Of a DNA stretch of 64,000 nucleotides, positions 1,803-24,831 are shown piece after piece. The stretch comes from Roridomyces roridus (lineage: Eukaryota; Basidiomycota; Agaricomycetes; Agaricales; Mycenaceae): NCBI GenBank assembly GCA_029378245.1, contig JARKIF010000006.1, positions 1,612,001 to 1,676,000 on the forward strand, written 5' to 3'. The translations under genes and the position numbers were made by a program. Under the pieces are notes generated by a model. That model did not search any database. It saw only the letters and a list, made by a program, of their open reading frames with translations, and was not told where the DNA came from. Numbering within the stretch: position 1 is the stretch's first letter; the number at the start of each line of letters is the position of its first letter.

Positions 1803-1869
1803 ATGTACGATTTATGTAATGAGAACGAACCATTTTACTACTACCGAGTCGGAGAGATTCTGTAAGAAA

Positions 1870-2720: not shown

Positions 2721-2721
2721 C

Positions 2722-4790
2722 CACCTAAGGAAGCTACGTTCGCGTACCTTCGGCACCCAGTAGGTAGCTTAATTTGTTGACATGAAGCGTACCTAATAGG
2801 TTGTGTCTACACCCAGCGGCGGATCAACTATACCCAATCGGGAAGCTCCTCCTGCCACCGCACCATCACCATCTCTGACTACCGACACGCCGCCGTCCAT
2901 CCACGCGCCGGAGTGCTACACCACTCATTTCACCTTTACATTGGAGTACTCCCTCGCCCTTTCAAGCACCCTTAAAGCGCGGATCTTCGTCATGATGCCA
3001 CCACCTCCGTTCCACCTCCACCAGCCCGAACGATCCGTTCCTCCTCCACCCGCCCCTCGTTCGGGCTGCCTTGCACGCTGCTTCCGTATCGCGACCTTCA
3101 AGACGCTTCACGACCTTGGGGTCTTCGTCTCCTGCGCATTTTTCGACCTACGAGCGTCCGCCTCCGCTCCTCCATCCTTACCACCAGCACCCCGCCGCTC
3201 ATTCCGTTCGACCTCCTCGCCGTTCCCGCTTCCCTACCTCCAAGCTTGATGACCTTGGAATTCTCGTTGACTGCGCCGGCGTCGACCTACGGACCTACCC
3301 ACCTCCGGACCCGTTCCTCTTAACCAGCACCCCGCCTCTTGTTACGTCCGCTTGCACGCCGCTCCCGCGTCCTCAAGACAGTTCTAGCCCCGTACATGGT
3401 AGCCTCTGCGATACCCTACGCCGGGGCTGGGACGGATGCCATGCACAGCCTCCCCGTTCCGCTGCGCACCCATCAACACAAGCAACTGCTTCCCGCGTGT
3501 ACCACCTGCAAATTATTGACCTCTACGACCCCCATCCTCCTCCCAACGTCTCAAAAATGGTGCATCAAACTTTTTGTTCTCGGGCGTGCCGAATACGCGC
3601 GGTGCTCACCATCGTACATCGCCCTCGCACACAGGAGGGGAGAGGGGGGCGGGAGGGAGGGAGCAAGGAGGGAGTGAGATCGGGGGGTAAGCATGGGAGG
3701 TGAGAGTGGGGAGGTGAGCGTAGGAGGTGAGAGCGGGGTGGTGACTCTGGTGAGTGCGGTGTGTGAGTGCGGTGTGTGAGAGCGGTGTGTGAGGGCTGGA
3801 GTTGAGACCGCGAGATGAGGGGAGTGACGGGCGTGCACGAAGTACAGGAGCGGCACGGAGGCTAGGGAGCGGAGGGAGAGGGCGGGAGACGAGAGCGAGA
3901 GCGAGAGATGGGAAGGATGGAGGAGGGCGGAAGATGAGAGCCGAAGATGTGAAGCAGGGAGGGCGTGAGATGAGGGGAATGCACGAGTGATTGTGTTCAT
4001 TTAGTGTACATTGTCGACGTCGTCACCTACCACAATGCATGTTTGATGATTTCAACTTTTCGGAGGCCGGAAAAATAGAACGCAGACTTGGAGGAAGCAT
4101 CCCAAGGCTTGAAACAGCATGCACAGTAGTGCCGAACATGTCTGAGTGAGGGGAGAATTAATTGAGCGACACTCTGTAAAAAAGTATAGCACGAGTATGA
4201 ATCTCTATAGGGAAGTACTCTACCTTTCGAACGAAACCGTGTACGCGTGTTAAATCATCCGGAAAAATGGGGGAAAAATCAATTTGGGTGGGGCAGACCT
4301 ACGACACAAAATCCCGACCCTCAAATGAGGCAATCTATGGTAAAATAAGACCTCCAGAAAAAAGAAAGTGGGGAACGATCTTTATTCGGCATCCGATTGG
4401 CTGCCCGGAAATTACTCAACGGGTGTGCCGTTGCGACGGAGGTGTGGGAGGTGGGCAAAGTTCGTCAAGGATTCCATTTTATCTGTGTTATACGGACTAG
4501 ATAGTATTCACTGATATTCCAAGCCTGAGAATCAGGAGAATGAGAAGCTCGAGGGAGGTAATATTCACGGTGTGGAGGTGTCGTAGGTGGTACAAGCCAA
4601 TGATAGAAAGCACCGCCGGATGGGCTTGATATCCCAGTCTACCACGCTCCCATATCTTCGCCCTTCACCTTCAAACGTCCCTCGGCGTCCCCCTGCTCTC
4701 ATACCTGCACCTCCGCCACCTCTCACTCTCTCTCACGCCCACCTCCGTCACTTCTGGTCTTCCGTGCCCTCCCTCTCCATGTGTACGCGA
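2722..4790 (+). mobile_element. Truncated copy A of the CACCTAAGG TIR element
   Basis: The first about 170 bp (CACCTAAGGAAGCTACGTTC onward) match both ends of the 2.96-kb element at 21689-24647. A second block, about 4090-4620, matches 23020-23570 of that element, including a run around ATCTTTATTCGGCATCCGAT that is identical over more than 30 bp. No right-hand inverted end was found, so this copy is truncated or rearranged on the right. The interior is CT-rich on the plus strand and gives long Pro/Ser-rich frames with no transposase motif. It is probably non-autonomous. Confidence 0.7.
3640..3960 (+). repeat. Purine-rich G-tract low-complexity repeat
   Basis: A run of imperfect GAGGTGAGAG-type and GTGTGTGAG-type units inside element copy A, with many GGG or GGGG tracts on one strand. 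It may form quadruplex or triplex structures. The long frames here are compositional artefacts. Confidence 0.6.
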
Positions 4791-5514
4791 GGGCAATTAT
4801 GAGCACCGTGCGTTGTAGCCCGAGATCTGGTGATGCCAACAAAGTCCATGTGTGTCTATACTACGGGTCGTGATGGTCCTCCCGGGGATCTCCGGAGGTA
4901 TAGCAGGAAAGGGTCAGAGCAGGAATGTCGCGCGGGAGAGGAATGCGCCGGTTTCGGAGTGGAAGGGCGGTCTCATTGTCTGTTGGGACAAGGGTAGGGC
5001 CGGGGATGTAGAGGTCGAGGATAAGGCGGGTGTGGGTCGCCTACATTACAGTGACTGCGAGCAGGATCCGTATAGAAGGTATACAATGTAGGCGTCGTGC
5101 GGAGGAGCCCGAAGGCGTCCATGGAGTGGGTACACGGAGAGTGGAGGTGGAGGTGGAGGTATGGTGAATTTGGGCGCTGTACTGTTCCGGTCGGGGGACG
5201 GTCGGTGCTCCAGCAGCTTCGGGCGGTCGATGTGAAACGAGAGACGTAAGTTGGAGAGCGCAGACAGCGCAGGACAGCGGTAGAGGACAGTAGTAGTCCC
5301 GGAGCTGGAGCGAAGGTCGTTGTCCCAGCGTTGCAGGGCACTTCCCGAACACTGCTTGTGGAGTGGTGTATTTCACAGCCAAATTGGATAACGAACGCCG
5401 CCCCACACGCACCGCGCAGCACGAAAGGGCGGTGGTCCGGTGGGCGGCGGAGGTGGGAGGCGTCTGCAGTCGTCTAGCAGCTCCCGAGAGTTTCCAGAAG
5501 CAACGCCAAGACTG
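4791..5514. other. No recognisable gene
   Basis: Low-complexity transitional sequence between copy A and the next transposon, including a short GGAGGTGGAGGTGGAGGT run near 5145. Several minus-strand frames of about 150 codons exist but show no family features. Confidence 0.5.
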
Positions 5515-7455
5515 CATCAGCAACTTGACACCCTCTTTTCGGGGAGGCTCCAGAGCTTTTCTGGCCCTTTTTCCTCTTTTGCTTTTTTTACCACTTTTTG
5601 TTCAGCTTTTATGGAGTAGACTGTGGCTTTTGAAGCTTCAGGTCTTTTGAGAATCCTTTTTTCATTCTGGGTAAAAAGTGGTCAAAAAAGACACGGCTCA
5701 AGTTGTGTAAGGAATGCACTCCGGAATAGGGAATACGTGGGGGCGGTTCTGGGGACAGCCGCTGTGAACATAGAAGTACAGCAAGGCACAACGGCACAGG
5801 GGCAGACATGAGTGGCATTAATTCTGGGAAAGTAACGGAGAGGCCAAGTGCAATGAAGACAGAAAGACGCTCAAAGAGTGGCACGACTCGGGGATTGAAT
5901 GGTTTTTACGGCTCGATACGGACACGTAACATACAGAGTAGATATACAAGCCATCTAGGCACATGAGCAGAGCCAAAGAGTGAGTAAAATGACCACTCAC
6001 CCAGTCCCAATGCCGCACCGGACCTGGAATTAGTCCATAGTTTGTCCCGGACTGAAGCCGACACCGGTGGATGGCGTTCTGCGTGCTTCAGGCTATGGAT
6101 GACAAGGCGGCACAGGGTGGCGCAAGGGTGGCGACAATCCGATGATGATGGCGGCCACTCACCAACTCCCACAGTGTGTCGCCGTCCGTCCCAGCTCCAG
6201 TCACAGATGAGTATTGGCAACGATGCAGTTGCGGCGCAGTAGTTGGGTGCAATTGAAGCCTAGGCAGTTGGCGGATAACCCAGCTCGTTCCCCGAGTGTC
6301 GTCGAAGGTGAGGGGTGGCTCGCGATGGGTGTGGAAGAGAAGTCGAAGACGCCACGCGGTCATCGGTGATCGGCGTTCCAGCTTGCGGCCGCTGAACACG
6401 TGGTGGTGGTTGATGACTGAATTCGGACGGAAGACAACAAACGCCAACAACACCCTCTTCTTTTCCCTCATCTCACCGACTCTCTGTCTCATCCTCTCGC
6501 TGGTTTCTGCTGTCTGATACTTCGTCCACTAGGGAACAATGTTACCCAGTGAGTATACCTAGCTGCTGCGGGCCGTCGGAGCCGTCCTAGTCTGACTCAT
6601 TCCCTTATAGACTCCATCCTCTCAGCGCCGACTCGGTCCTGGACTTGAAGTCTTGACGGGAGACCTTCAGCCAAGAGTGCATTCCCTGACTCTTCCACAC
6701 ATCTCGCCCACTGATGATGCAGTCCCTCGTAGGGTGACTGACGTCGCGGACCGTGGCTGCGTCCGCTGCCACATATGTCGAGCTACAGTATGTCATCCAT
6801 TTCCTCACATTATCCGCAGTCGTTGACCTCTGTCGGCCAGGCTTTCTCCCTCTCCTCAAATCTGCCTGCATGGTACGCCAAACACTGTGAGTTGCCATGT
6901 TCCACCTGCGATCTTAACATCCTAATGTCCAGATAGGCTATCAACCACCCACCCAGTCGGCTCCTTACGCACACCTATGACCCGAATTACTTCATCTTTG
7001 TCAGCCTGTGCCCAATTTTCAGCCGCCATCGATGTGCGCATTGTCGGCGCTGCCGCCGCTACCTGGGTACGTGTTCAATGTGCCTACGTGTAATCCGAAG
7101 TCTAATTCTTGACCCAACAGTCTCAGTCTGGGCTCCGTGCTGTCGTTATTGCTTTGTTGCTAAGGGTACGTGCACTATCTTCTCTGCATAAGTAGATTTG
7201 TACATTCGATAGTGCTCAATGCAATATATATCTTCTACCCTCATTTGTGTGAAATATGGGTGTTTCGGGGCAGCTTTTGGAAGTGCTTTTGGGGGCAACC
7301 AGGCCGCTTTTCTGAGGGTAAAAAGCACTTTTTAAGCAAAGGGACCTAGCTTAAAAAAGTGCCGGACACTTTTTCCTCTTTTCCACTTTTGACGCTTTTC
7401 TGGGTCCAAAAAAGACACAAAAGAGGAAAAAGCCCAAGGTGTCAAGTTGCTGATG
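5515..7455 (+). mobile_element. 1.94-kb TIR element with TA target site (copy 1, full length)
   Basis: The two ends are inverted copies of CATCAGCAACTTGACACC (5515-5532 and 7438-7455), followed on both sides by similar TTTTTCCTCTTTTG tracts. The right flank is TA. The left flank is not TA, which the inversion described in the findings explains. The first 977 bp are repeated in inverted orientation at 20139-21115. No long transposase frame is seen; the interior has short exon-like pieces and a Cys-rich CVRCHICRATV peptide near 6760. It is a non-autonomous or decayed element; the TA target suggests Tc1/mariner-type mobilisation. Confidence 0.85.
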
Positions 7456-7469
7456 TACCTTTTCCGTAG

Positions 7470-10400
7470 AATCAGCGGTGCCATTTTCGGAGATTGCGAC
7501 CTGAACAATCTCTGCACGGCGGCCTGCACCAGCTCGCTGGCCAGCTACCGCGCCAACGTAGTCACCGCGTGTAAAGGATATTCAATGATTCTAGATCCAT
7601 CGACCAACGTCTCGTACGCTTTCATTTCTCCGCGTTTTGTGTCCGGGCTGACTGCTTTGATTCAGATACGCTCCGACGCTGGCTGTGGACTACGTTCTAG
7701 CCCCTTACACAGTTCAATGTCTCAAGGACACAACATCCGGGACCTACTGCCTGGACGTCCTCAAGGGTTTCAACGCCTCCGCCGGCATCTCATCCCTCCC
7801 CATGGCGGAACTCTGCTCGAATTGCATCTTTGGGACCATGAACGTCACCCTCTCAGTCCTGTTTTATATTCGATGGCAACCGAGAATCTCTACAACGCTT
7901 CGGCTGCGACATGCGGCCTTCCCAAGTTTAATCCCTCCTTAATCACATCTCCCATTGTTTCCCCCGGCACGCCCTCAGGATCCAACTCGACGTCGACCGT
8001 CTCCGATCAATGTGCGATGCTGGGACGGAATGTGACTGTCAATACAGCAAGCACCTGCGCCGCCGTGGCTAAACAATTTTCTGTCTCTCTCTACGATGTT
8101 TCTTCGTACGTGAATTCTCCTAGTATCGAACCGCTCTCATTACTTCCAGATCCAACTCCCTCCCGCAAACAGCGTGCAACGTCCCGGCAGGGTCTACCCT
8201 CTGCTTGCCCCAAGCGTGTACCACATACACAGTCGCGACGAACGACACCTGCCCCAGCATCGCCGCAGCCGCGAACATCACCACCGTCCAACTGGGACTA
8301 TACAACGTCAACTTTGGATCGGCATGTCAATATCTACCCCAGTTGGTCGGGAACCTCGTCTGTGTGAGTCCACACGGTGGATTCCCCTCTGTTGCTGCGT
8401 CTAGCGCAGCGATTGCGCCTTCGGGTACCGCAACCATGTTGGCTCCCGTGCCGACTCCTACAGCTGTCGGGTCGACAGCTGCCTGTGGGGAATGGGCTAT
8501 CGTTGTCGAGGGGGACTTTTGCAGTACCTTTGCGCTCAGATATGCGACGACGGTCGCGGATTTGTTTATAATGAACCCCGGTGTGTCTTCTACCTCGTCT
8601 TATCAAACAAGCTGTTCGAACATGTTTGTAGAAATCAATTCCACCTGCGGTAATCTCCTCGCTGGGTTCTACTACTGCGTTGAACCTTTCCCTCCGTTTA
8701 TGACGGTCACCACCACGGCGCTTCCCACTTCGGCAACAAACTTTACAAGCATATCGACATTTAGCTTTTCGCTCCCTGCCCCTACTCCTACTCTCGGCTT
8801 TGAAACTCTGACTCCCGTCGGTGTGCCCGCTCCGACGAATGTGGCTCCGGGTACGCGCACGGCGGCTTGTGGTTATTATTACAACATCTCGGTGGGTGGC
8901 TCTTTTTCTTTCCTTTCACGCCACTAACTTGGAGAGCTCAGACGGGTGATACGCTTGCGTCGATTGCAAACATCTCCGACCAGGCCGAGAGTGACCTCAT
9001 CACTTGGAATTCTGGTACGTACCTCATTGCATTTCTTTGCTCTTGATGCACTCATCCATCCTCCTTCCCACAGAACTAGCAACAAGTGTCCCCGCCGTAG
9101 GTTCAGCCGTCTGTGTCATATTCCCCACCGGCAACTACACGCTCTTTCCCGCCGACCCACCCGAGAATGTCTCGCCCTTTGCCACATTGGACTGTGCCGA
9201 CTACTACACCACCGTGCCGAACGATTCGTGTACCTCCATCGCGGCTGCGCAGGATATCTCCATCGACCAGTTCCTTGCTTTGAACCCGGGGCTTACGTGC
9301 GCAGGCCTCCTTGCTGGAGTCGCGTATTGCGATTTCCCGCTTACGCCGGTGCCGATTGGTCCCCCGTCGAACCTCGCTACCGGCTCACTCGCAAATTGCA
9401 CCACATATTATACGGTAGGTGTTGTTTTCCTTCAAGTATTCGGCGGCTGATGGTTGTGTAGGTTGCCTCGGGGGATAACTGCAATGTGGTCGAGCAGAAG
9501 TTCAACACTGCACTGGTTGATTTGCTCCGGTGGAACACGGCGCTTACCGCGTCTTGTACCACCATCGGGTTGGGCGAAGCCTACTGTGTGGTTGGAGGAG
9601 GGGATCCATGTCCCCAAGTTTACACCGTACGCTCTCCCCTTCCCTACCTCTCTTTATCTGGCAACTGATGAGCGTGCCAGGTCGTACCCAATGATTCGTG
9701 CGGCGCCATCGAAACCAAGTTCAGTATCACGTTGAACGATATCATTGCGTGGAACCCCTTCTTGACGTCGAGCTGCGCTATCCAAGTTGGCCAGAATCTG
9801 TGCGTCGCTGGACCTCCTTCGACTGGTGCGCCACCAACTAGTGGGCCACCCGCAAACATCGCATCTGGGACTCTCAAGAATTGTACGACTTATTACACGG
9901 TGAGGAGGATTTTTTCATCCGTCAAGCCGAAGTTATTCACACGCTTTGAAGATTGCCTCTGGCGATACATGCACAGCAGTAGATACGAAATTCAATATCG
10001 CGCTGAGGGATTTGTTGGAATGGAACACCGCACTTACCTCGGCTTGCACTACTATCCAGTTGGCAAGCGCCTACTGTGTTGCCGGGGGCGGAGACGTGTG
10101 CAGTAAAGTCTACACCGTGAGTTCCTCTCTCTAATCTTTCCGGGTATTTAAAGCGTCCACAGATAGCATCGGGCGATTCGTGCGGGTCCATCGAGACCAA
10201 GTTCGGCATCACGATCAACGATATTACCGCCTGGAATCCTTGGCTCACGTCGACTTGTGCCATTCAAATCGGTCAAAACCTCTGTGTTTCGGGGGCACCG
10301 GCGACGTCGACACCACCGGCGAGTGGGCCGCCTGCGAATATCGCTACTGGGACTCTGAAGAATTGTACCACGTACTACACGGTGGGATTTTTTTTGGGGG

Positions 10401-10782
10401 GCCTCACCCAGACAACTGACTTGATCTATGTACGCCAGATTGCATCTGGAGACACTTGCACGGCAGTGGATACGAAATTCAGTATCGCGCTCAGAGATTT
10501 GTTGGAATGGAACACCGCCCTGACCTCAGCTTGCACGACCATCCAGCTGGGCACCGCCTACTGTGTTGCCGGCGGTGGAGGCACGTGCAGTAAAATCTAC
10601 ACCGTAAGCTGACCTTCTTCTCTTCGACCACATCTCACGCATTGCAGGTTGTGCCCAACGACTCTTGTGGTGCCATCGAGACCAAATTCGGCATCACTAT
10701 GGCTCAAATGCTGCAATGGAACCCATTCCTAACTTCGACCTGTGCTATTCAAGTGGGGCAGAATCTGTGTGTTGCCGGTTGA
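7470..10782 (+). pseudogene. Multi-LysM secreted chitin-binding protein, body of the gene without its first exon
   Basis: A secreted LysM protein that would bind chitin oligomers. After the splice acceptor at 7469 come the Cys-rich N-terminal module (CDLNNLCTAACTSSL; then CLKDTTSGTYCLDVLKGF) and about 11 LysM-like units. Six of these form three near-identical two-domain blocks, alternating CTTYYT-IASGDTC and VVPNDSCGAIETKF types, each split by an intron at the same place after the YYT or VYT motif. The stop is a TGA at 10780-10782. A one-base deletion near 7862 breaks the frame between NVTLS and PVLYS. The matching first exon is at 21152-21307 on the other strand. No catalytic domain is present. 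The LysM call is certain; inactivation is inferred. Confidence 0.9.
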
Positions 10783-12487
10783 GCGTAGATTTTATATATA
10801 TAAATAGGGGTAGTTGGGCTACATTTCGTACAAACAGTTGTAGCGATTCCGCAGTTGATATCACAGAATCCTATCAAATTTGATGGCGGCGGTGCACGGC
10901 AACTTTTGATCGCAACAACAAGTGCCGAAATCTGCCGCTCAGCGAAAACATTTCAAGTCAAAGGAGCTGCGTTCCAGACAAATACCATTGGGCGAGTATT
11001 CCATTACATTCTCTACGCTACAAAATCCGGTTGGCAAGTACATACAAGCAGAGAGGCAGATGAAATGGTAGGGACGGATGTGCTTCGGGACTCTAGGCCG
11101 GACCGCGGACGGCGAGGAGCAGCCTCGACGCACCCAGACCACTACATAGCCAACAACGCCCCGCTGCAGCCGTATCCGTGCGCCTCACTTCATGAGGGCC
11201 CGAGGCTCATGTGGCGAGGAAGACACGGACACTAAGACGTGTTCGCCTCGACGACGGGCGACGGCGTGTGCAGCGGGGAAGTGGTAGCCGAAGGGGAGGC
11301 AAATGGGGTGTCTCAGCGCCAGTGACCAGCGCCAGCGACCAGCACCGCCTGAGAAAGAAGAGGCGAAGGGAGCACTCACCGTCACACCTCTACCCAGCGG
11401 TCCCAGCCCCAGCTCATTTGCCCGTCCAACGCGTAAGAGTGGCATTGTTCGCATGGAGGCATTATTACGGGCAGGTGATTAATGGGCGAGCATCGAGAAG
11501 GGCATGAATGCTGCACCTAGCGTCATCAATTGCACACATTGCGAGGTCGAGGGCCGAGGGTCCATGCGAAGCTCATGGCGGGCGAGTACCGACACTTTTG
11601 AGACCGGTGACACTGAGAAGGCAGAAAGACGGCTGACGTCGATGATAGACGGCGGGGTGTAGCGAGCGTGGTGTCGGGGTGTGAGGGGAGGAAAGGAATG
11701 ACGTTGTTGTCTCATGTTTTGCTTGACGGCTCTTGTCGGCACCCCTGACTGAGATCAAGAGCTGCCGCGTGCGCCGGGATCAATTTCTCCAGATCACATT
11801 TGATATCAACTGCGGAAATGCAAAAGTGCGTACAACCCTAATTGAATCGCTTTGATTTCCAGCGCCTGAAAGTTTCAGAAGTTCCAAAATGACTGGAATG
11901 AAAGCAAACTGCTACGCACCAATTGCTTAGAAAAGAAGCGAGAGAAGGAAAAGTTCCCCGCGGCAAACCACAGCTGCGAGCGTTAGCTTGCACCCTTCCT
12001 TGTTGATATTCAACTTACCCCGGGATACCCAAAAGCACGATAGCACCCGCGTACAGCCACATTTTCAATGCCGAGTCCACTATGCGGACGGGAAGCATTG
12101 CGGGAAGCCTAAGAAGGTGAAATGTTCGTGTCTTCCATCCACCTCACCCCGCCTTCAGTCATGTATTGAATTTCCCCACAGTCAACGCAAGACCATTACC
12201 GCCATGGTTGAAGATTTTGAATCTGCCCGGTGTGCGCTACACACCTGATCCATCAGACCTAACGCGCATTCGCCTCGCTCGCCAAAGCTTTCGAATGGAA
12301 TCAAGTGAATAGCAAATCATTAGATAATGACACTGGGAAAGTCTGGCTTTAGAAAAGGGAACTGCGTGTCCAAAAAACATGAGCTTCCGCCGCGGAAGTT
12401 TCATGACAAAAGTACTCTAAATCACTACGAGAAAATCAGAGAGATTCGACAAAGTTCCAGCGCTCATACTCACATGTTATACAAAGG
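10783..12487. other. Intergenic, no recognised gene
   Basis: Contains a TATATATAAATA run at 10794 just past the LysM stop, a short CAGCGCCAGCGACCAGCGCC repeat near 11310, and a small frame at 11988-12248 with no family features. Confidence 0.5.
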
Positions 12488-13779
12488 CTACGCACTCAAC
12501 TCGGGCGTATCCGCAAACGACATATCCGTCATCCCAGCAGGGTACCTCTCCCCTTGGACCGCATCCGCCTTGCTCGCCAACTCCCGCACAGCCTCGATGT
12601 CCTCTGCCGACAGCGTGATCGCACCCGCGGCGAGGTTCTCCTCGAGGTACTAAGGGTGCCGGTCAATGTTCCATACATCGCGGTGGACGGACAACGGACC
12701 TTGATCTTCTTCGTCCCAGGGATCGGAATCACGTCCTCACCCTGCGCGAGAACCCACGCGAGCGCAACTTGCCCTGGGGTAGCATTGTACTTGGCGCCGA
12801 TCGCTCCAAGGCCCTCGACGATCTTCAGGATGTTGGGGAAGTTTTCCGTGCTGTATCTGTTCGAATATTCTTGAGCATGAGAACGGACGAGAAAAGAAGA
12901 CAAAACGCTCACCGAGGGATCATCCGGCGGAAATCATCTGCGGCAAAATCGGCTGGAGATTTCTACACAGGTGCCTCAATGAAAAACACTCAGAGACTGG
13001 CCGCAAAATACGTACATATTGCCCAGTAAGCAGACCCCGTCCAAGAGGCAAATATGCGATAATCTTGATGCCGAGTTCACGCGCCGTGGTGAGAATCCCG
13101 ATCTTCGGGTCCTCGATGTCGAGCGTAAAAGGCGAGTACTCGACTTGGTACGCTGCGATGGGATGTACAGCGTGAGCCCGGCGGAGGGTTGCGGCTGAGG
13201 ACTCCGAAATGCCGATGTGCTTTACTTTGCCTTCTCTGAGAAGAATTCGTCAGAAAATGCGATGAAATGGGCGTAAAGCGCACTTGACGAGCTCGGCCAT
13301 GGCGCCGATGGTGTGCTCGATGGGCGTGTTCTTGTCCGGACGCTATAGTCACGTCAAAGAGAGAGATGACTTGTAGAAAACTGCGACGCACGTGAAGATA
13401 GTCCACATCCAGGCGCGCGAGGGAGGATTTTGCCGCCTCATGTACCCGCGCTGGCGTGCCGTCGATGGTGAAATCGGGCTTGAATCCAAACTTGGTGGCC
13501 AGAAAGATCTCGGAGCGCTTTCCAGTCCGTTTAAACCTGCCCCTGGTAAGTGAAATCTAACGATGGAACAGGAGAGACGCACCATTTGCCGATGAGCTCC
13601 TCGGAATCGCCGTACATGTCAGCCGTGTCCCAGAAGGTGCATCCAGCGGCGTAGGCAGCGTCGAGGACTTTGAAGCGGTCCTCGTCGGATTCTATTGCGC
13701 CGTAGAAGCCTGATATGCCCATTGCGCCAAAGCCAATGGCCGAGAAGGTTGCGTTTTCGATGCTGCGAGTAGGAGACAT
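12488..13779 (-). CDS. Aldo/keto reductase, complete, about 7 exons
   Basis: A complete NADPH-dependent aldo/keto reductase of the YakC-like group. The start at 13779 gives [20 protein letters not shown]. The catalytic set is visible: Asp and Tyr in [19 protein letters not shown], Lys in [10 protein letters not shown], and His in LDVDYLH followed after an intron by [15 protein letters not shown]. Then come [38 protein letters not shown] and [20 protein letters not shown]; it ends [10 protein letters not shown]. Introns are about 45-65 bp. It is a close paralogue of the gene cut by the left window edge. Cytosolic; substrate unknown. It lies inside the segment that appears to have been inverted. 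Confidence 0.9.
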
Positions 13780-15058
13780 GGTAGATGAGAATGAGATGAG
13801 GGAAAGTCACGATTACGGGGGCTCTTGTAGGCAGCCATTTGATGTCTTCGTCAGCGTCAACCCCTGCCGCGTCGACGTACGCGTCGACGGCACCGGGCGG
13901 GATCTGGGATGATGTCCAAGCTTGTTCGGGTAGACGGTAACGGTGAGCTGGAAGTCGGATTGAGTGGCAGAGGGACTCGGCAAGGACGTACGCGTCGACG
14001 GCATTGGTCAGCAAACACGGAACTCCGCCGATTACGGAGATCTGTTCCGTCGATCTGGGATCAGATAAGGCTTGCTTTCGCTTTTCACAACTTTTTCATT
14101 ATTTTACCAAGTCCTTGCCATGCGAATCTTCCGACGACCCAAGTTGGACCCAAGCCTACATCGTGCGCGCGTTCGGCAACAAGGCGGCCATTGACGCCAC
14201 AATAGATCCCGTGACCGCGTACTTGCATCGAAATTCTACGCGTCTACGCGTCTGCCACATCCCTTTCATCTCACTTGAACAATCGACCTCATCAGAAAAC
14301 ACTACTGAACCCAAAAATACCCCGTCGAATCAGCCTCACGACCTCACCAACTCTCAAACAATTTTCCCCTGCTAGGGGCGATAGGGCCCTACATACCGAA
14401 CGGCGAGGACGCACACAGTGGGGCGGCGCAATAACATTGAGCTCGGTGGCCTCTCACGTGGCGCGCGGATTCAAGTCTGTAGACAGACGGTACAGGTGGT
14501 ACGATGTCCGAAGTCGTGTTCAGCGCAGAAGAGGGGGTCGACAATAGCAAGGATGAGTGGGAGACCAAGGCGTAGGATGTGGTACTTGCACTTTTCTATC
14601 TTTCCTTTGGAATTCGAGCAGGGGGTTATGTACTTGAGTATCGGGTTCGTATTTATCTGGGCGAATCAGAGATAGCTTGCGAGTCGCGTTTCTTCCAGAC
14701 CTGCAGAGAAGACGCCGCGGTTCTCCGTAATCTGCGATGTGTAAATCTGAGGGCAAAACGTGTCGTTCGCGACTCGGTCTTCAGCTGCATCCAGTCCAAA
14801 AAAATGTCGAGTGGCAACGTGTTCTCGGGAGTGGCCTTGAGTTCTGCGGGAAGAAGAGAGGGATTCAAGGCGTCATTTGTATGTTAGGATAAGGTTTGGG
14901 GTCGCATTGAATTGATTAGGGCCCATGAGATCAACTGGTCCGGGAGAGCTGGTCAAAGCTCAAGTGCATCTGTCGCTTGGATTGTTTTACGTGTATGACA
15001 GAAGAGTCGGCAGCCTTGCACAGGTCTGCAGATCTAGATACACCAATGGTTGTGTCAA
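13780..15058. other. Intergenic, no recognised gene
   Basis: A motif GACGTACGCGTCGACGGCA occurs near 13873 and again near 13984, with a partial palindrome CGTCGACGTACGCGTCGACG. Frames here are short and show no family features. Confidence 0.5.
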
Positions 15059-18032
15059 TAATGCAATGTCCCCGGTGATAAGTGGGGGCAATGTTGCATT
15101 ATTCGCGGCCTCTCACCGCCGGTGAGATGGTAGGGTAATGCATTGTCCCGTTGTTTTGTGCGCAAGGGTTAACAGGCCTGGGTAACTGAGGTAAGCTTCA
15201 AATAAGTCCTCCGAGCATCGCGGACATGCCATTTCTGGAAGGTGTCGGTTCCTTTGTACTTAACATTGATGCCGGATCGTTTTTACTGAGCGATCCAGTG
15301 ATCTTTGGGACATACATATGACAGAGATCAATGGCAGCCCAAAAAGGTCCACAGATCAAAAATCCACAGCCCGGCACAATTGTTACCATCGCAATTGATG
15401 TGATGTATCAAAAAATCAAAATCATAGAGCGGCTCAAGGGCTACAAGAGTTGTCAACATGTGTTTTAGCTCAAATGGCTTGGTTAGGCTGTAAAATGCAA
15501 AATACATTCCCAGACCAGAGTCTTTTTGATCAAGTGAGGGTGAGCGCCGATGTGGTTGTCCCAAAGATCTGGCTTATCATGGCCTTGTTGTCTACTAGTA
15601 TGTTCCCTGTGCCTGCTGCATTCTCTTTTGCTCTGAGGTCCCGGGTTCAATCCCTGGCCTCCTCTTTTTTTTCTCCTGTCCCCAGCAAACAATTCCTGAT
15701 GACACCAGGCATCACAGGATGCTAGCATGATGTGCTGCAACATCACAGTGCCACCAGAATTCTATGTACCTCAAGTTTCCAGTGAATTTGATGCCGATTT
15801 CCAATTGTAGCCACTACGCTTTTGTCCCAAAAAGGCAATTTTTGAGTTTCTGGCCTCTCTGGGCTTCCCATGTTGATTGCTGACAGAATTTTCCACCAGG
15901 TATGTTTCTTGCAGTCTATTGATATGTAACTGTGGCCATTCAAGCTTCCAATGACCCTGTTGTACACCTGTAATTGCACAAATAGACCGGCTTTGGTTGA
16001 TCTCCCAATATTACCTCCCTTTTGGTTCCCTAATACTGCAGCTGCACCTCAGAGAGGTACCTAGAGTCATAGAGATGAGCTCAAAGCAATATGGCCCCAG
16101 GTGCATACCTTGAAGCTGACTTGCAAATGAATCAGTGAAAATGCTGATCTGACTGAAGGCACTGATAATGTCCATTGAGCCTGTGATCCAGGGGCTCATG
16201 AACTTGATGGCATGTCTAATTATCCATTGCAAGTGAGAACTTACCTAAGACTCTCCAACAGACAAGGCAATTGTGTGATACTGCCTGCAACAGACTGTTG
16301 CCTACATTGTGCATTCCCTAGATTTTCCCTGGTGATACAAATAGCTCAGGGGATCTCTGATAGTGTACAGACAGGCTTAAGAGCCAGAGATCACTGATTC
16401 ATGGACTCAGAAACACAAGTTTGAAGAGCATACATTTTGTGATCAATTCAGTGATTGGGCACTAAGGAGGTTGAATAAAGCATATCAGAGACTAGAAATG
16501 GGCAAAGGACGTTCTGAGCACCTCAAATGAGCTTTATATCATCAGATTTGGCGAAGAACTGAGAGAGTTCTGTTCAAGTGGTGTCCGAGCAAATGGCCGA
16601 AATCTTACCTCACAACCGTGACATCCCTCCACCCATTCAGATGCAGCTTGTTCATTTTCCACTTCAATGGATGTATTGGCAACTAGGAACATGTTCCACC
16701 TAAGTTTCAGCCATTGATTGGGCCTACAGAACCCCCCAGAGCAGGAACTCAGGGCATCAGTGCAAAATGATCCTGGTTGTATCTCAGGTTACAACCCCTA
16801 GCTGTGTGATTTCTCATATCAGGCTGGTAAATTATGCCCATTGAATATCCTTTAGGCCATAGGATTGAGCACATGAACTGTACAGGAGGAGAAATGGTGC
16901 AGAGTTGATTTTGACCAAGTTGTGGCAGAATCTCTTTGGACTGACTGGATGCTGTGAAACTAGCTTTCAATTCCAGTTTGGAGAGTATCTGGGCGTCCCA
17001 GACCTCTTGAGATCACATAGAATAGTCTCTCTATCAGCTCATACCACAAGATCAATCACTGGCTTGATGCACCTGGTATTATTCCCCAATGGTCTGAGCA
17101 CTTAGTTTTCAGCAATGAGGTTCATTGAATCATATGTGAAAACACTGAGGAGGATCCTATAAACTATTGAACAAGGCTAGCAAATGTGATCATGAATTGC
17201 AACAAGGGCTCTCTATTCAACCCATACAGTGTCCTGATCATGTTCTGTTGCTTTCCAATAGGAGCAAAAGGATGTATAATGCATCCCAGAACAATGTCTG
17301 ATCAGCATGCATCCCAGAATGCAGAGGGTTCTGCTTAAATTCACTCAAACTGGTGAAAATTCCCTTTTTGGGAAAAAAGCGTAGTGGCTCATGTCAATCA
17401 GGGCTGTCATCAAGTCCGGAAGTTGAAGCATTTCACAAGGTTCTGCTCACATTGAGGGTTTGCTTGTGATGAAAATACATACTAAATGAATGGTGTTACA
17501 CATTTCTGGGTACAGAGGGAAAGCCAGGAGAAAAAAAGGGGGCACCCGGGTTTTGATGCCAGCTTTTCCACAGTGTTTTGCATTCCCTGAGCTAACCAAG
17601 CATTTCCAGTCAAAGGTATATAGGAAGCTCCTGTAGGCCGGAATGCGGGCCACAACTTTGATGTACATCATGATTTGATGGCTGATGCGATGAGCCGCAT
17701 CTGCAATTGATCAACAGTGGCTACTGGCAATGACCATCAGAAAATGATCTAACTCATCACCATCAAAAACTGATCCGTCTATCAAAAATGATTCCTCCAT
17801 CCATCGCCATCAAAAATGATCCAGCGATAACCGTGATCAAACAACAGCGATCAATCTGAGAATGAAAACTATACCATTAAAAAGGCCATTTGAAATGTGA
17901 AATTAAACTCAGAAATAAAACCCTGAGGCCCTCGAAAACAACGGGACATTGCATTACCATCCATCTCACGGGCGGTGAGAGACCGTCAATAATGCAACAT
18001 TGCCCCCACCTATCACCGGGGCCATTGCATTA
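15059..18032. mobile_element. CpG-depleted 2.97-kb element with about 95-bp terminal inverted repeats
   Basis: The left end TAATGCAATGTCCCCGGTGA and the right end (inverted TAATGCAATGGCCCCGGTGA) match over roughly 95 bp, down to the CCCGTTGTTTT boundary. Each end also folds on itself, since AATGCAA at the tip pairs with TTGCATT about 35 bp inside. The interior almost lacks CG dinucleotides (I count about 26 in 2.5 kb), while flanking DNA is CG-rich. Near the right end, 17730-17850, a motif CATCAAAAATGATC recurs four or five times. No transposase frame survives. It is an old, decayed DNA transposon of unknown superfamily; no clear target duplication was found. Confidence 0.75.
15580..15672 (+). 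other. tRNA-like (pol III promoter-like) fragment
   Basis: GGTCCCGGGTTCAATCCCTG at 15638-15657 has a complete T-arm (CCGGG / CCTGG stem around TTCAATC), followed by CCTCCTC and a T-run that could terminate pol III. Upstream, GGCCTTGTTGTCTACTAGTA resembles a D-arm/A-box. No matching 5' acceptor strand is found, so it is not a functional tRNA; it may be a SINE-like or tRNA-derived relic inside the CpG-depleted element. Confidence 0.4.
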
Positions 18033-18448
18033 ATGGTACAGTTATTACTCCTAGATATGGGAATTGACGTCGCATTGCGCGAATAATGGACCCTGAAATC
18101 AAATGAGAACTGGTCTCTTGCTCTCGCATTTCACTCACCGTCGCAGTGTAGTCGTGCACAGCGCGGCATCCACATCTCCTGCACTCAGCAGACTCCCCAA
18201 TAGTGGAGTACTACCCTCCCCTCGCAGGAAATTGCAGGAATATTGCAATTTCCCGAGACGACTCGTCTTGCCACCACCCACCGGTTCGAGCTGGTCATAA
18301 ACCAGCCTTCCTCAGTTACGAACACCGACGCATCCACGGAGGCGTCCCACCTCACGAACAGCTGCGGCTACCCACGACCCGAAATAATTTATCCAGTGAG
18401 TAAGGCTTCACATTTCGCGGGTGGCACGCTCACCGATGGTCCAAAGCG
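18033..18448. other. Intergenic / possible 5' region of the next gene
   Basis: Minus and plus frames are short. CG content returns sharply to the level of the flanks. Nothing else recognised. Confidence 0.4.
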
Positions 18449-19679
18449 ATGGCCTATAGCTACCCCTACCCCTACACCTCTCCCCTTCTCCTCCCCTTCT
18501 CCTCCGCCTTCTTCCCCACCGCGCACACGACGGCCTATGCCACCGTCCCTTCAAGCATCCAAGGGACGCGACTGACTCTCCTCGACGCAAGAACGCGCTG
18601 GGAGAACCGGTGGCTTAGGAGCCAACTCCACCACATCCTCAGCAATCCTGGCCAGACGGATTCCCCCATTCACAAAAGTGAAGGGAACCGTCTGCTCGAA
18701 GCTCTGTCGACCGCGCAGCGTACGGGGACCGACATGATATTCCCTCCCCCGGGCCCCTTGGAGACCCATTTCCAGAGCCGCGCGCGCGTGCCACTGGGGA
18801 TTTTGACTAACGTTGTCGTGCTTGCCGAGGCAAGGAAGGACGAGCAGATACCGGTCGTTGGAGCCAACAGCGGGTCCAAGAACACGAATGAGACGGACAC
18901 GACGCCAAGGATCGCGATGCACGAGATTGTAGGGAACCGCCTCCTCAAGGCCCTGACGACCGCGCAGCGTACGGGGAATGACATGGTATTCCCTCCCCCG
19001 GGCCCCGTGGAGGCACGTTTCCAGAGCTGCGCCAACGTTGTCGCGCCTACCGAGGCGGAGAACCACGAGGAGAAGGCAGAGGCTGAAGCAGTCGTCGGGA
19101 CCTGTGGCGGGTCCAGCGACATGAACGAGCTGTATATGTCAGTGGTGCCAGGGCCCGCCACCGACGAGTCGCGCGCTCCGTCGGTAGCTTCTTCCTACGG
19201 CAGCTTGGACTGGTACCCACACCCGACGCCCGCAGAGGCAGGCGCTCGCCGACGAGCTCTTGGCTCCCGGTATGAAGCAGCGTCTGGACAAGCTGGAGGA
19301 GGACCCTGCCGAGCGAGTCAAGGTCATGGAGGCGATGAAGGCAGGCAACGCGTACGACTATATATTCTCTCTTCTCGAGGAGACGAGTCTGGCCTCTGAC
19401 ACCGAAACCGAGTCGGAATATTCTTGGACGGCGTGTAGCGACTCCACGTCGGAGTTATTCGTCGTCTGGGGCCAGGAGAATGCGACCGGGGATTCAGACG
19501 TGGATGTGCTCGACAAGGCCGGGCGAAACCAGTGGGACCACTTGGTCATCGAGGAGGGCGCGCTTGCTGGACCTCAGACTTCGGATTCGGCGCAGGAGAT
19601 GCGAAACGAGTATTGCGAGACGTTGGAGGATATCCTCGATCTGCTGCGAGCGGTGGACGCCGTGGTAGAGGGCCAATAG
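18449..19679 (+). CDS. Orphan acidic protein with internal duplication, probably frameshifted
   Basis: The first frame (18449 to about 19235) contains two copies of a motif, GNRLLEALSTAQRTGTDMI and GNRLLKALTTAQRTGNDMV, each followed by FPPPGP, from a direct DNA repeat with a period of about 249 bp. Near 19230-19240 coding appears to shift by one base into a second frame that runs QALADELLAPGMKQRLDKL and ends at 19679. That second part is paralogous to 53700-54216 (WDHLVIEEGA against WQHIVIEGGA, then an acidic helix). The homologous region lies only after the shift, so I think this is a frameshift and not two genes. No known domain; probably a lineage-specific orphan. Confidence 0.5.
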
Positions 19680-19936
19680 AGGCTCTCAGAGGGGTGCGCC
19701 AGTTTGAAGCAGGGCGCAAGAGATTCATTTGACGACGGGGAAGCATATTGACTGCATGGGGCAAGCAAAGTCCACGGAGTGTACCATATTGTACTGTTCA
19801 CTTGCTGTGTGTGTTGTAAATCATAATCACCTGCTTTCTTTGCATCTTGAAGCTTGAAGAGTGAAGAGCAGGCGACAAAGTGTCCGATGAGGAGGTGAAG
19901 TGAGCGAGTGGTGTTTCCCATCACTTTCTTCTTCCC

Positions 19937-20139
19937 CAGTGTTCGCCCAGAGGGCTTTGAATCGGGGTCCCAGAGGCTCAAAGGCCTTTCAAAGGGCAAG
20001 GAGCTTTTCTCATAGGGCATCTCAAAGGCCTTTGAGAAACAATGGCATTTTTTCGAACATCAGATTTATGGCCACATAACCGCAGAGATGAGCTGTTTTC
20101 TGAATGCCCAGAACCAGCCAGCTAATTTCTTTCTCTGGT
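19937..20139 (+). mobile_element. 203-bp 5' fragment of a hAT-like MITE
   Basis: Starts CAGTGTTCGCCCAGAGGGCT and matches the first 203 bp of the element beginning at 21308 with one noticed mismatch (GGCAAGGAG against GGCAAGGGG). It stops at CTCTGGT, exactly where the inverted 977-bp transposon piece begins; both share TGAG at the junction. The right-hand TIR is missing. Confidence 0.85.
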
Positions 20140-21115
20140 GAGACAGAGAGTCGGTGAGATGAGGGAAAAGAAGAGGGCGTTGTTGGCGTTTGTTGTCTTC
20201 CGTCCGAATTCAGTCATCAACCACCACCACGTGTTCAGCGGCCGCAAGCTGGAACGCCGGTCACCGATGACCGCGTGGCGTCTTCGACTTCTCTTCCACA
20301 CCCATCGCGAGCCACCCCTCACCTTCGACGACACTCGGGGAACGAGCTGGGTTATCCGCCAACTGCCTAGGCTTCAATTGCACCCAACTACTGCGCCGCA
20401 ACTGCATCGTTGCCAATACTCATCTGTGACTGGAGCTGGGACGGACGGCGACACACTGTGGGAGTTGGTGAGTGGCCGCCATCATCATCGGATTGTCGCC
20501 ACCCTTGCGCCACCCTGTGCCGCCTTGTCATCCATAGCCTGAAGCACGCAGAACGCCATCCACCGGTGTCGGCTTCAGTCCGGGACAAACTATGGACTAA
20601 TTCCAGGTCCGGTGCGGCATTGGGACTGGGTGAGTGGTCATTTTACTCACTCTTTGGCTCTGCTCATGTGCCTAGATGGCTTGTATATCTACTCTGTATG
20701 TTACGTGTCCGTATCGAGCCGTAAAAACCATTCAATCCCCGAGTCGTGCCACTCTTTGAGCGTCTTTCTGTCTTCATTGCACTTGGCCTCTCCGTTACTT
20801 TCCCAGAATTAATGCCACTCATGTCTGCCCCTGTGCCGTTGTGCCTTGCTGTACTTCTATGTTCACAGCGGCTGTCCCCAGAACCGCCCCCACGTATTCC
20901 CTATTCCGGAGTGCATTCCTTACACAACTTGAGCCGTGTCTTTTTTGACCACTTTCTACCCAGAATGAAAAAAGGATTCTCAAAAGACCTGAAGCTTCAA
21001 AAGCCACAGTCTACTCCATAAAAGCTGAACAAAAAGTGGTAAAAAAAGCAAAAGAGGAAAAAGGGCCAGAAAAGCTCTGGAGCCTCCCCGAAAAGAGGGT
21101 GTCAAGTTGCTGATG
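20139..21115 (-). mobile_element. Inverted partial copy 2 of the 1.94-kb TIR element
   Basis: The reverse complement matches 5515-6491 over exactly 977 bp with no length change. I noticed two substitutions, both giving single residue changes in shadow frames, so identity is above 99 percent. The minus-strand left end CATCAGCAACTTGACACC is at 21098-21115 and is flanked by TA (21116-21117). The other end is cut at the MITE fragment. Confidence 0.9.
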
Positions 21116-21151
21116 TAAGTGAATGTCGGGATGGGTATGAAAGGAACTCAC

Positions 21152-21307
21152 CCCATTGTAGAAGCAGTGGAATTGCATTGGATAGTCGCCGTGAGCGCCG
21201 CGGCACAAGTCGAGGACGGGGGAGGGTTGTTGGGGAGATTTGAACTTGTGTACAGATTGAATCCGATAGCGGCCGCAGCGACAACTGCGTTCGTCGTCGG
21301 GGTGACG
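21152..21307 (-). pseudogene. First (N-terminal) exon of the split LysM gene
   Basis: Minus-strand frame with AVVAAAAIGFNLYTSSNL, then a Pro-rich spacer and the Cys-containing CAAALTATIQCNSTAST. This is the typical start of a basidiomycete multi-LysM protein, with a weakly hydrophobic leader. The exon ends at a clean GTGAGT donor (first intron base 21151). The next exon is not downstream on this strand; instead the 977-bp transposon piece follows 36 bp into the intron. The missing exons are at 7470-10782. Upstream the exon is interrupted at 21308 by a MITE, and the frame resumes at 24663-24702. Confidence 0.8.
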
Positions 21308-24300
21308 CAGTGTTCGCCCAGAGGGCTTTGAATCGGGGTCCCAGAGGCTCAAAGGCCTTTCAAAGGGCAAGGGGCTTTTCTCATAGGGCATCTCAAAGGC
21401 CTTTGAGAAACAATGGCATTTTTTCGAACATCAGATTTATGGCCACATAACCGCAGAGATGAGCTGTTTTCTGAATGCCCAGAACCAGCCAGCTAATTTC
21501 TTTCTCTGGTTGAGTAGAAATGGCACCGACAAAGGGGGCGGGTCGTCGTCGGCATTGATGCGCCTTCCGCCGGTGATTGATTGATGCGAAAAGCACGTGA
21601 TCTCAGAGGGCTCTGAGAGCTTTGAAATTCCGCAAAAAATTTCAGAGCCCTCTGCAGAGGGGTCTCAAAGGGCTTTGCCCTTTGGGCGCACCTAAGGAAG
21701 CACCGTTCGCGTACCTCCGGGACCGAGTAGGTAGCTTAAAATGTTGACATGAAGGGTACCTAACAGGCGGCATCTACACAGCGGCGGATCAATTGTTCCC
21801 AATGGGGAAGCTCCTCCTTGCTCAACACCACCACCATCGTCACCGCTCTGACACCCCTCCGCCAATCCACGCTCAAGAGCGCTATGCGCCTGCTTCTCTC
21901 TCACCATCCTCGCTCTCTCAGGCACCCTCACGCCCGCTGAAAGGTCCAAGAAAGGTCTCCGTCGACGCCGCCACCTCTGTTTGACTGTTTCCCGCCCTCC
22001 ATTCGGGCCTTGCACGCAGCCTCCTGAATTTTCCCTCAACAAGATCTTGGCAAATCCGGTGTTCCCGTCGACTGCGACGCTATCGGCGTACCACACCCCT
22101 GGTGGGCCGCTTCCCGCACCGCCTCCGCATTCCTGCTTCAAATATGCCCGTACGACAGCCTGAACATCGAATTACTGCTACGCTTTTGACGAACCACAGG
22201 CCTGACCTACGACACCCCTCCACCTTCGTTCCTCACCTGCACCTCCGTTCCTCCTTGACCCGCACCTCGCTCCGGCCGCTTGGCACGCCGCCTACGCATC
22301 CTTACCTTTCAAATGTGCTCAACACGGTGCTCCCGCCAACTGACTGCGCTGAGGACGCTGCTAATGCAGCACCGGCTGTCCACACTGCAGCCGGGGACCT
22401 TAGGCTAGTTTACCGCCTCCAGATTGGGGATGAAGACATAGGCTTTGGTCCATGCCCTCGAGGCCATCATCCGCGACTCCCTCGAGGCCATCCACACCGT
22501 CTACGGCATCCCCTCCTCCCTCCTCCCTCCTCCCTCCTCCCTCCAGCCTACGACTGTCCTTCACTTGAAGCGTCCTCTGGTGGGTTGCCGTTGGTGTCGC
22601 TCCACCTGCGTACCCACGACCGTCGGCCTTTGTCCATGCCAGCGCAGCAACGGTGCTTCGTCGTCCGAGTCTACGTTGATGCACAGCCCGCAGCCCCAGC
22701 GTTCACTTCGCCTTCTCCTTCTCCCTCCTCGCTCTCCCTGCCTCTCGGCCTTCCTTCTTTCAACGCGTCCTCCGGTGAGTCGGCGTTGGCGTCCGCCGTC
22801 AATCCCCTCGCGCACTTTCGACCATTGGCCGGCCGTTTGTTGATGCTTGCGCAGTAACAGGGCTCTACCCTGGTAGGAGAGGGTAAAATGATGCTGGAAG
22901 TGCGCAACGGATGGGACGGGACGAAGAGGGAATGGCGGCTTGGCTCGGTTACAGGAGGATTTATGTTTGATAGAATTCTTGATTCAACTTGTTTGAGGCC
23001 AAAAGAATTAAACAGAGGATCGGAGGAAGCATGCAAGGCTTCGAACGACATTCCCAACAGTGCTGAGCATTGCTGAGTCGGGGAGGAATTAATTGCTTGA
23101 CAATCTGCGAGCAAGTTGTAACCGAAGTAAGAATCCGTATGAGAAGTACTCCGTCTTTCGAACGAAACGGTATTCGTGGACCAAATCACCCCAGAAAAAC
23201 GGGACAAAAATTCATTTGGGTGCGGCGGACCTAGAACATGAAATCCCGAACTTCAAATGAGTGAATACGAAAGGAAATGCGTGTTAGAGAAAAATAAAAG
23301 TAGGGAACGATCTTTATTCGGCATCCGATTGGCTGTCGGGACATTACTCAATGGTGTGCCGATGCGACGGAGGTGTAGGAGGTGGTCAAATTCTCAAGGA
23401 TTTTGTTTTATCTAGGCTTATACACAAAAGAGATAGTATCACTCAATGTTCTAAGCCTTGGGAATGAAGAGAACAAGAGAGGAAGTAGATCATAATGGAT
23501 TGTGCGGAGGTGCCGTAGGTCACCGGTCACCGGTGGTACAAGCGAGGATAAAAAGCAAGCATCGTCGCACGGCCTACCTTCACAAAACTCGACTCCCAAC
23601 GTTCCATAATCGACCTCCTCTCCCTCCTCACCTCCCAACGTCCCAGGTACCCCCGCTGATACCACCTCTTCACCTCCGACCCTCCTCACCCTCCCCTCCC
23701 GCATCTCCAGAAGAGTAATGATGGACGCCGCGCGCTGCAAATACACCTCACTCCCCCGGCCCACACCACCGCTTTACGCATACCATCCTCCTCATGATGG
23801 AACAACCCACCCACACTCCTCGCCGCCTGCTATCGCCCCTCGTATCTCCCTCCTCTTTGTACTGGATGGCTTGACATTGTTTCAGAAGGGCTCCACCGCC
23901 GTTCAATATGATTGGGTAGCACGCAAAGGAGGGACTAGTAGCACACAAAGGAGGGGCTACCGATACAAGCCGGGGCGCCAATGTGGCAAGCCCCACCTAG
24001 CTTTCGGGAGGACGGAAGCGTCGCAGATGCCAAGGACGTCGAGGTCGTCAAGCCGGCAAGGGCGTGGAGGTGCCAAGGAAGAACGGAGGTGGGGGAGGTG
24101 CCGTAGGTCAAAAGTGTCGCAGCCAATGGGGCATTGGGAGCTGTAACGTTGTGGAAACGTTTTGAAGTCGAGACGCCGATGCTGCGTAGAAGGCAGCCGA
24201 ACGGGGCGCGGGGAGCAGGGAGGTGCCGTAGGTGAGGTTGGTAGGTGGAAGGTTTCGCCGTCGGCGGGAATGGTATAGTGTCTTGAAAACGTTCTCGAGG

Positions 24301-24662
24301 TTGGGACGAGGAGGCCGCATGAAACGGCGTAAGGGGCGGGTAACAAGCAGGAAGGGAGGTAGCGGCGTCAACGCAGATCGTCCAGTGACCTTGAGGGTGC
24401 CTGAGACCATCAGCAAGTTGTTTGAGGGCTTGCCAAAAGAAGCGGCACAGCGCGCCGGGCATGGATTGGCGGCGGCGTGTCGGGCGTCGAAGGTGGTGGT
24501 GGTGTCGTGGCAGAAGGAGCTTCCCGATTGGGTATAATTGATCCGCCGCTGGGTGTAAACACAACCTATTAGGTACATACACTTCCTGTCAACAATTTAA
24601 GCTACCTACTGGGTCCCGAAGGTACGCGAACGTAGCTTCCTTAGGTGTTTGGGCGAACACTG
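21308..24662 (+). mobile_element. hAT-like 388-bp MITE, interrupted by a nested element
   Basis: Left end CAGTGTTCGCCC and right end GGGCGAACACTG are inverted, starting CA and ending TG. An 8-bp target duplication GGGTGACG flanks it (21300-21307 and 24663-24670). These features fit hAT-type mobilisation. Without the nested insertion (2959 bp plus an 8-bp duplication) the unit is 388 bp, too short to code. The interior has palindromic tracts rich in AGGGCTTTG/CAAAGCCCT. It sits inside the 5' exon region of the split LysM gene. Confidence 0.9.
21689..24647. mobile_element. 2.96-kb TIR element (CACCTAAGG ends), nested in the MITE
   Basis: Inverted ends of about 170 bp start CACCTAAGGAAGC and finish GCTTCCTTAGGTG. 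The 8-bp target duplication TTTGGGCG is at 21681-21688 and 24648-24655. No transposase is present; the long frames inside (for example 22102-22857 and 23935-24582) are Pro/Ser/His-rich by composition. A CTCC tract lies near 22505-22550. A truncated relative is at 2722-4790. It is probably a large non-autonomous element moved in trans by an 8-bp-TSD transposase. Confidence 0.9.
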
Positions 24663-24702
24663 GGGTGACGGCAATGAGGTTGTCAAGCGTCGGTTCCGGC
24701 AT
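24663..24702 (-). pseudogene. 5' end of the split LysM coding region
   Basis: A minus-strand ATG at 24700-24702 opens MPEPTLDNLIAV. Across the MITE and one copy of its target duplication this frame continues in phase into the exon at 21152-21307. Whether this ATG is the true start or an intron lies here is unclear, because the leader is not strongly hydrophobic. Confidence 0.45.
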
Positions 24703-24831
24703 CACTGGCTGTGTTGACGACCGCGAATCCGCAAGTCTAGAAAGGAAGATTTGAGCCACTTGTCGTGTCGCAGCTCATAATGGACTCACTGCTGCAAGAG
24801 TGCATCGTGGAAGAGATTGTTGTGGGCAGCT

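What the first reader, a model, noticed from the sequence alone, without database searches (positions are those of the whole stretch)
5515..21117. A LysM gene split by an inversion between two copies of a TIR transposon
Copy 1 of the element (5515-7455) has its right end flanked by TA and then the splice acceptor and body of the LysM gene (plus strand). The inverted 977-bp copy (20139-21115) has its left end flanked by TA and then the donor side of the LysM first intron (minus strand). Neither copy has TA on both sides, but the two outer flanks match each other. Flipping the segment between the copies puts exon 1, the element and exon 2 in one orientation. Removing the element and one TA leaves a 48-bp GT-AG intron that joins in frame (TMG to ISGAIFGDCDL). 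That size and fit are hard to get by chance. The simplest history is insertion into intron 1, then recombination between inverted copies.
Basis: partly seen in the sequence, partly recalled or inferred. Interest (0 to 1): 0.9.

Follow-up and report, generated by a model that had tools for sequence, protein, structure and literature searches.

The report
Transposon-made inversion splitting a LysM gene
In one of two versions of a mushroom chromosome region, two opposite copies of a small jumping gene appear to have recombined and flipped the DNA between them, cutting a LysM gene in two; the unflipped version is in the same assembly, and a sister element seems to have flipped a second region.

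Summary
The assembly holds a second contig (C459), about 95-99.5% identical and collinear, in which 175746-184226 runs opposite to window 7456-19936. There LysM exon 1 and exon 2 are joined by a 48-bp intron with one TA and no element. In the window each half has a TA at its own element end, so the target duplication is split between copies. The element is a non-autonomous PlavakaB transposon; its duplication is any 2 bp, not TA. Copy 2 is cut short at 977 bp and differs from copy 1 at 3 of 977 sites, which favours crossover between two older copies over a duplicate made by the event. A sister subfamily shows the same signature on C442: opposite copies 13 kb apart with exchanged duplications and flanks that face each other on C212. 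A third inverted pair (C323) shows no exchange. The mechanism is known (Galileo); agent and setting are new to me. The gene is also hit by another insertion and both alleles show exon indels, so impact is modest. No reads were available.

The parts
2722..5514 (+). Left part of a haplotype-specific TIR element (B', 'hAT-like' is my label from recall); its right end is missing; the left Plavaka copy lies in it
   Evidence: C459 is collinear up to 174920 = window 2721; begins CACCTAAGG; relatives L056-L058 align to window 5499 and run on about 211 bp to a right end CCTTAGGTG
5513..5514 (+). TG: remaining half of the 2-bp duplication of the left Plavaka insertion (inferred)
   Evidence: equal 2-bp flanks in 13 of 17 others examined
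5515..7455 (+). Full-length non-autonomous PlavakaB element, 1941 bp; flanks TG/TA do not match
   Evidence: terminal class from PMC12730594 passages
7456..10782 (+). LysM gene from the acceptor side of intron 1 to the stop, inverted relative to C459
   Evidence: 7456-10835 is 98.8% identical to C459:184227-180853; LysM Pfam matches; stop seen
7456..19936 (.). Inverted segment (ancestral content C459:184227-175746), also holding two haplotype-specific insertions
19937..20139 (+). First 203 bp of a MITE, cut off at the junction with the Plavaka fragment (1-bp overlap at 20139)
20139..21115 (-). Inverted Plavaka copy, positions 1-977 only; differs from copy 1 at 3 sites
21116..21307 (-). LysM exon 1 part with the donor side of intron 1; TA next to the element
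   Evidence: 98% to C459:184225-184417
21308..24662 (.). Second insertion in LysM exon 1: MITE with 8-bp duplication GGGTGACG and a nested element 21689-24647 with 8-bp duplication TTTGGGCG
24663..24832 (-). Continuation of the LysM 5' region beyond that insertion
   Evidence: window 24662-24832 is 98.8% identical to C459:184409-184579

Best explanation
This haplotype carries an inversion of about 8.5 kb of ancestral sequence (12.5 kb now), made by ectopic homologous recombination between two opposite copies of a non-autonomous PlavakaB element. Steps: (1) one copy inserted in intron 1 of the LysM gene with duplication TA (shown by the empty site in C459). (2) Another inserted in element B' about 9 kb away with duplication TG (inferred from its one remaining flank). 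(3) A deletion removed the far half of that copy and the sequence up to a MITE (inferred; its order relative to the inversion is unknown). (4) A crossover within the shared 977 bp flipped the segment (inferred), leaving exon 1 and exon 2 about 13.7 kb apart with the TA halves on different copies. A further insertion, earlier or later, also broke exon 1. A second pair on C442 probably went through the same process.
For: Uninverted, element-free contig with a single TA at the site. Collinearity of the two contigs: window -22 kb to +52 kb with C459 151-220 kb, and C459:130-136 kb with C458:1521-1532 kb at 89-99%. Split TA. Variable 2-bp duplications in the family. Different variants in the two arms: copy 1's first 977 bp equal copy L004, while copy 2 differs at 3 sites. 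Element class: 4 of 5 facing terminus pairs 4-10 kb apart contain Plavaka transposase PF18759 matches, and PMC12730594 (passages) gives PlavakaB termini as CATCA..TGATG with 2 or 3 bp duplications. Second inverted pair on C442: exchanged duplications and flanks facing each other with a 2-bp overlap on C212.
Against: No reads were available, so spanning of the 977-bp arms is untested. The left insertion's second duplication half is deleted, so only one of the two sites shows an exchange here. Chimerism of the copies, the strongest mark of a crossover, could not be tested: no pre-inversion parents are held. TA and CG are their own reverse complements and CG is common among the flanks, so 2-bp matches alone are weak. 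The C442 flanks are repeats and its other junction was not searched. The C323 inverted pair shows no exchange, and C124 and C190 have unequal flanks without a known partner.
Confidence: 0.85

Rival explanations
1. Assembly artefact: this haplotype really has the C459 order with both element copies, and the assembler flipped the segment between the 977-bp inverted arms.
For: The arms are 99.7% identical, the family has other near-identical copies, and no reads were examined.
Against: The contig is 2.9 Mb, which suggests long reads (inference). A second locus shows the same kind of structure. Even so, the insertions and the deletion junction would be real.
Confidence: 0.08
2. Aberrant (hybrid-end) transposition or a staggered break made the inversion and its inverted duplication in one event, with no earlier left copy.
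For: The left copy begins exactly at the element terminus and copy 2 stops at an arbitrary position, 977. Hybrid-element insertion and staggered breaks are named as rivals for such structures in PMC2775673 (passages).
Against: That predicts identical arms. They differ at 3 of 977 sites, and one variant of copy 1 is shared with copy L004 elsewhere. Relatives of B' show the left copy sits inside B', so an ordinary insertion with TG plus one deletion suffices. The exchange on C442 fits a crossover.
Confidence: 0.06
3. C459 is a segmental duplicate rather than the allelic haplotype, and the two orders are paralogous.
For: LysM paralogues exist near by, and one distal stretch of the two contigs is only 89% identical.
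Against: Collinearity over about 70 kb at 95-99.5%, differing mainly by insertions, versus 84-94% for the paralogues. A housekeeping family, RIBIOP_C, also has two nearly equal matches on different contigs.
Confidence: 0.08

Closest known systems
Galileo-generated inversions of Drosophila buzzatii (PMC2775673; abstract and passages seen)
   Same: Two opposite transposon copies at the breakpoints, exchanged target duplications, several other transposons at the breakpoints, polymorphic inversion
   Different: Different transposon superfamily and kingdom; this inversion is only about 12.5 kb; chimerism shown there, not testable here; here a gene is split
PlavakaB elements of Agaricomycotina (PMC12730594; passages seen)
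   Same: Termini CATCA..TGATG, 2-bp duplications, Plavaka transposase in long relatives with the same terminus
   Different: This element is 1.9 kb and taken to be non-autonomous; the passages I saw report no inversion
hAT-10 inversion and a Plavaka-related deletion in Marasmius oreades protoclones (PMC9674265; passages seen)
   Same: Rearrangements at transposon copies in a mushroom, including one inversion and a deletion cutting into a Plavaka element
   Different: Variants seen between protoclones; the inversion involved a hAT element

Membership tests
Plavaka (PlavakaB lineage) | Termini 5'-CATCA..TGATG-3' | tested here: met
Plavaka (PlavakaB lineage) | 2 or 3 bp target duplications | tested here: met
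   Equal 2-bp flanks in 13 of 17 examined (7 of 7, 6 of 10); the 17 are a choice out of 84 termini and include one 4.8-kb transposase-bearing pair
Plavaka (PlavakaB lineage) | Plavaka transposase encoded | tested here: inconclusive
   The element's own place is not among the PF18759 matches listed; 4 of 5 facing terminus pairs 4-10 kb apart do contain such matches, so it would be a non-autonomous member
Transposon-mediated inversion by ectopic recombination | Two copies in opposite orientation at the breakpoints | tested here: met
Transposon-mediated inversion by ectopic recombination | Target duplications exchanged between copies | tested here: inconclusive
   TA is split between the copies with a single TA at the empty site, but the other site's second half is deleted; a full exchange is seen only at C442
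Transposon-mediated inversion by ectopic recombination | Both copies chimeric relative to their parents | not testable with these tools
   No pre-inversion copies held; only 3 informative sites
Transposon-mediated inversion by ectopic recombination | A chromosome with the uninverted order exists | tested here: met
   C459
LysM gene family | LysM domains (PF01476) | tested here: met
   3 of 4 LysM-gene pieces match above the cut-off

The most novel reading that the evidence does not exclude
This PlavakaB family is a recurrent maker of roughly 10-15 kb inversions between haplotypes: opposite copies lying close together tend to flip, so small gene-cutting inversions are a regular source of difference between the two nuclei of a mushroom. 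Two of the three inverted pairs under 60 kb that I examined carry the signature.
Probability: 0.35. Interest if true: 0.55.

Novelty: new member of a known kind. Interest (0 to 1): 0.45.

Why it matters
The assembly holds both orders of an inversion together with the empty insertion site, so most of the mechanism can be read directly. It points to a fungal transposon lineage as the agent, offers two cases in one genome, and shows how one allele of a LysM gene was taken apart. The 2-bp exchange test can be run across Plavaka copies of phased mushroom genomes.

Tried and rejected
TA-specific (Tc1/mariner-like) insertion: rejected, since equal 2-bp flanks are TG, CA, TA, CG, GT, TC, CC and GA, CA, CG, TC, TG. 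An inverted duplicate made by the event itself: disfavoured by the 3 differing sites. Separate partners for the LysM halves: not found, apart from the partial C141 body match. The flank 4300-5514 was searched in the hope of an empty left site; its matches, other than itself, are partial and 67-89% identical, to repeat sequence of B'. The C323 inverted pair (about 50 kb apart) has equal flanks on each copy (GA/GA, CA/CA): no exchange. C124 (CG/CT) and C190 (TG/AA) have unequal flanks and stay unexplained. The species was not identified. Literature searches that gave nothing used here: (0 papers; 15, 8 listed; 2; 15, 8 listed), all seen as listings only.
Full report
WHERE. The window is G000:C458:1612001-1676000 of a 90.8-Mb, 501-contig assembly. 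A LysM piece (window 8142-8906) gave 5 protein hits; the 3 with source names are Mycena sanguinolenta (2) and Mycena chlorophos (1), 56-68% identical. The organism is probably a Mycena-like agaric (inference); the species is unknown.

OBSERVATION. Element 5515-7455 and the inverted partial copy 20139-21115 are as described. The tool's 100% is rounded: 3 of 977 positions differ (160, 856, 938).

THE UNINVERTED CONTIG. C459 (237 kb) is collinear with C458 from window -22 kb to +52 kb at about 95-99.5%. Further out, C459:130-136 kb matches C458:1521-1532 kb in three pieces of 99, 89 and 98%. The two differ mainly by insertions and by one inversion: window 7456-10835, 11829-15040 and 18051-19936 correspond to C459 184227-180853, 180861-177654 and 177660-175746, all in reverse, while window 302-2721 and 21115 onwards are in direct order. 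At C459:184226 the exon 1 and exon 2 sides are separated by a 48-bp intron (my count) with a single TA at the insertion point. That the contigs are alleles is an inference from collinearity. RIBIOP_C matched 3 loci, two of them (C223, C14) with nearly equal scores; that two loci are usual in a haploid fungus (BMS1, TSR1) is recalled.

THE ELEMENT. L002-L008 (five copies at 99-100%, two at 85%) have equal 2-bp flanks in 7 of 7 cases. Of 10 further copies or relatives that I chose, 6 have equal flanks. The terminus has 84 matches with at most 1 mismatch, against 0 for the reversed pattern. Five facing terminus pairs in that list are 4-10 kb apart; 4 of the 5 contain PF18759 (Plavaka) matches and C246 does not. 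PMC12730594 (passages) describes PlavakaB as CATCA..TGATG with 2 or 3 bp duplications. I therefore take this as a non-autonomous PlavakaB element.

THE LEFT SITE. C459 is collinear up to 174920 and resumes, reversed, at 175746 = window 19936; the 825 bp between have no match in the window. In the window, element B' begins at 2722. Relatives L056-L058 (three places; L059 overlaps L057) align to window 5499 and run about 211 bp further to their right end. So the left Plavaka copy lies inside B', next to TG. A deletion then joined its position 977 to position 203 of a MITE, with 1 bp of overlap. Whether it came before or after the inversion is open.

MECHANISM. Insertion into the intron is shown by the empty site and a TA beside each half. 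Recombination between opposite copies is inferred: the reversed segment ends in the two copies, the TA is split between them, and the arms carry different variants. Copy 1's first 977 bp equal L004; A at 938 is found in those two only among 6 full copies and copy 2. A one-event duplicate would leave identical arms, the argument made for Galileo in PMC2775673 (passages). With 3 sites and no parents, chimerism could not be tested.

A SECOND CASE. Two 1783-bp relatives (79% to this element over its positions 766-1941) lie in opposite orientation at C442:2164179-2165961 and 2179171-2180953. Their flanks are CG/CT and CG/AG, the pattern an exchange predicts; CG is its own reverse complement and common, so this alone is moderate evidence. 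The outer left flank matches C212:505448-505729 (its last 282 of 400 bases, 99%) and the inner flank of the other copy matches C212:505050-505449 (400 bases, 100%), facing each other with a 2-bp overlap. In the three other places that match (C469, C461, C24) the same flanks also face each other, about 180 bp apart, with the last 186 bases of the inner flank unaligned. So 4 of 4 other places have the order that C442 lacks. The flanks are repeats, so C212 may be another repeat copy rather than the allele. Against a general rule: the C323 pair shows no exchange, and C124 and C190 have unequal flanks with no partner found.

THE GENE. LysM domains match 3 of 4 pieces. Exon 1 also carries a MITE (21308-24662, duplication GGGTGACG) with a nested element (duplication TTTGGGCG); 'hAT-like' for these is my label from recall of 8-bp duplications, no transposase was tested. 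The alleles differ by 34 mismatches and 4 indels over 3,381 columns; by my reading of frames, each has at least one exon frame change relative to the other, which may be decay or sequencing error. Other LysM paralogues exist. So the inversion is not a clean loss of an otherwise healthy gene.

LITERATURE. Two papers in the library hold both Plavaka and inversion. In PMC9674265 I saw passages: its one inversion involved a hAT, and one deletion cut a Plavaka element. PMC7473861 was seen only in the listing. I saw no Plavaka-made inversion in these searches, which are limited and mostly listings.

VERDICT. A real inversion by a known mechanism, with unusually complete evidence for one assembly and a probable second instance: a new member of a known kind.

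Noticed in passing
G000:C442:2164179-2180953: Opposite pair of a sister Plavaka subfamily with exchanged 2-bp flanks, and outer and inner flanks that face each other in 4 of 4 other matching places: a second likely inversion of about 13 kb.
   Followed up: partly
window 21308-24662: MITE with 8-bp duplication in LysM exon 1, itself hit by a nested 2959-bp element with an 8-bp duplication.
   Followed up: yes
window 10836-11828, 15041-18050, 24833-25261: Three more insertions relative to C459, with target duplications of about 8, 7 and 10 bp.
   Followed up: partly
window 27525-31341: Stretch absent from the aligned C459 sequence, holding an element with 99-bp inverted ends (28398-30767) and a 420-aa frame without a Pfam match above cut-off.
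   Followed up: no
window 31957-32496: GH18 chitinase piece, 31.6 bits against a cut-off of 29.6, on the strand opposite to the LysM 5' region; in C459 the two lie roughly 5 kb apart. Whether they form a divergent gene pair was not tested.
   Followed up: no
window 12529-13556: Aldo/keto reductase pieces carried inside the inverted segment; one above and one below the Pfam cut-off.
   Followed up: no
G000:C124:1031064-1032952 and G000:C190:63320-66061: Relatives with unequal 2-bp flanks (CG/CT, TG/AA), possibly products of recombination between copies.
   Followed up: no
window 54936-57437: Two similar stretches about 1.3-1.5 kb apart, 79-93% identical in pieces.
   Followed up: no
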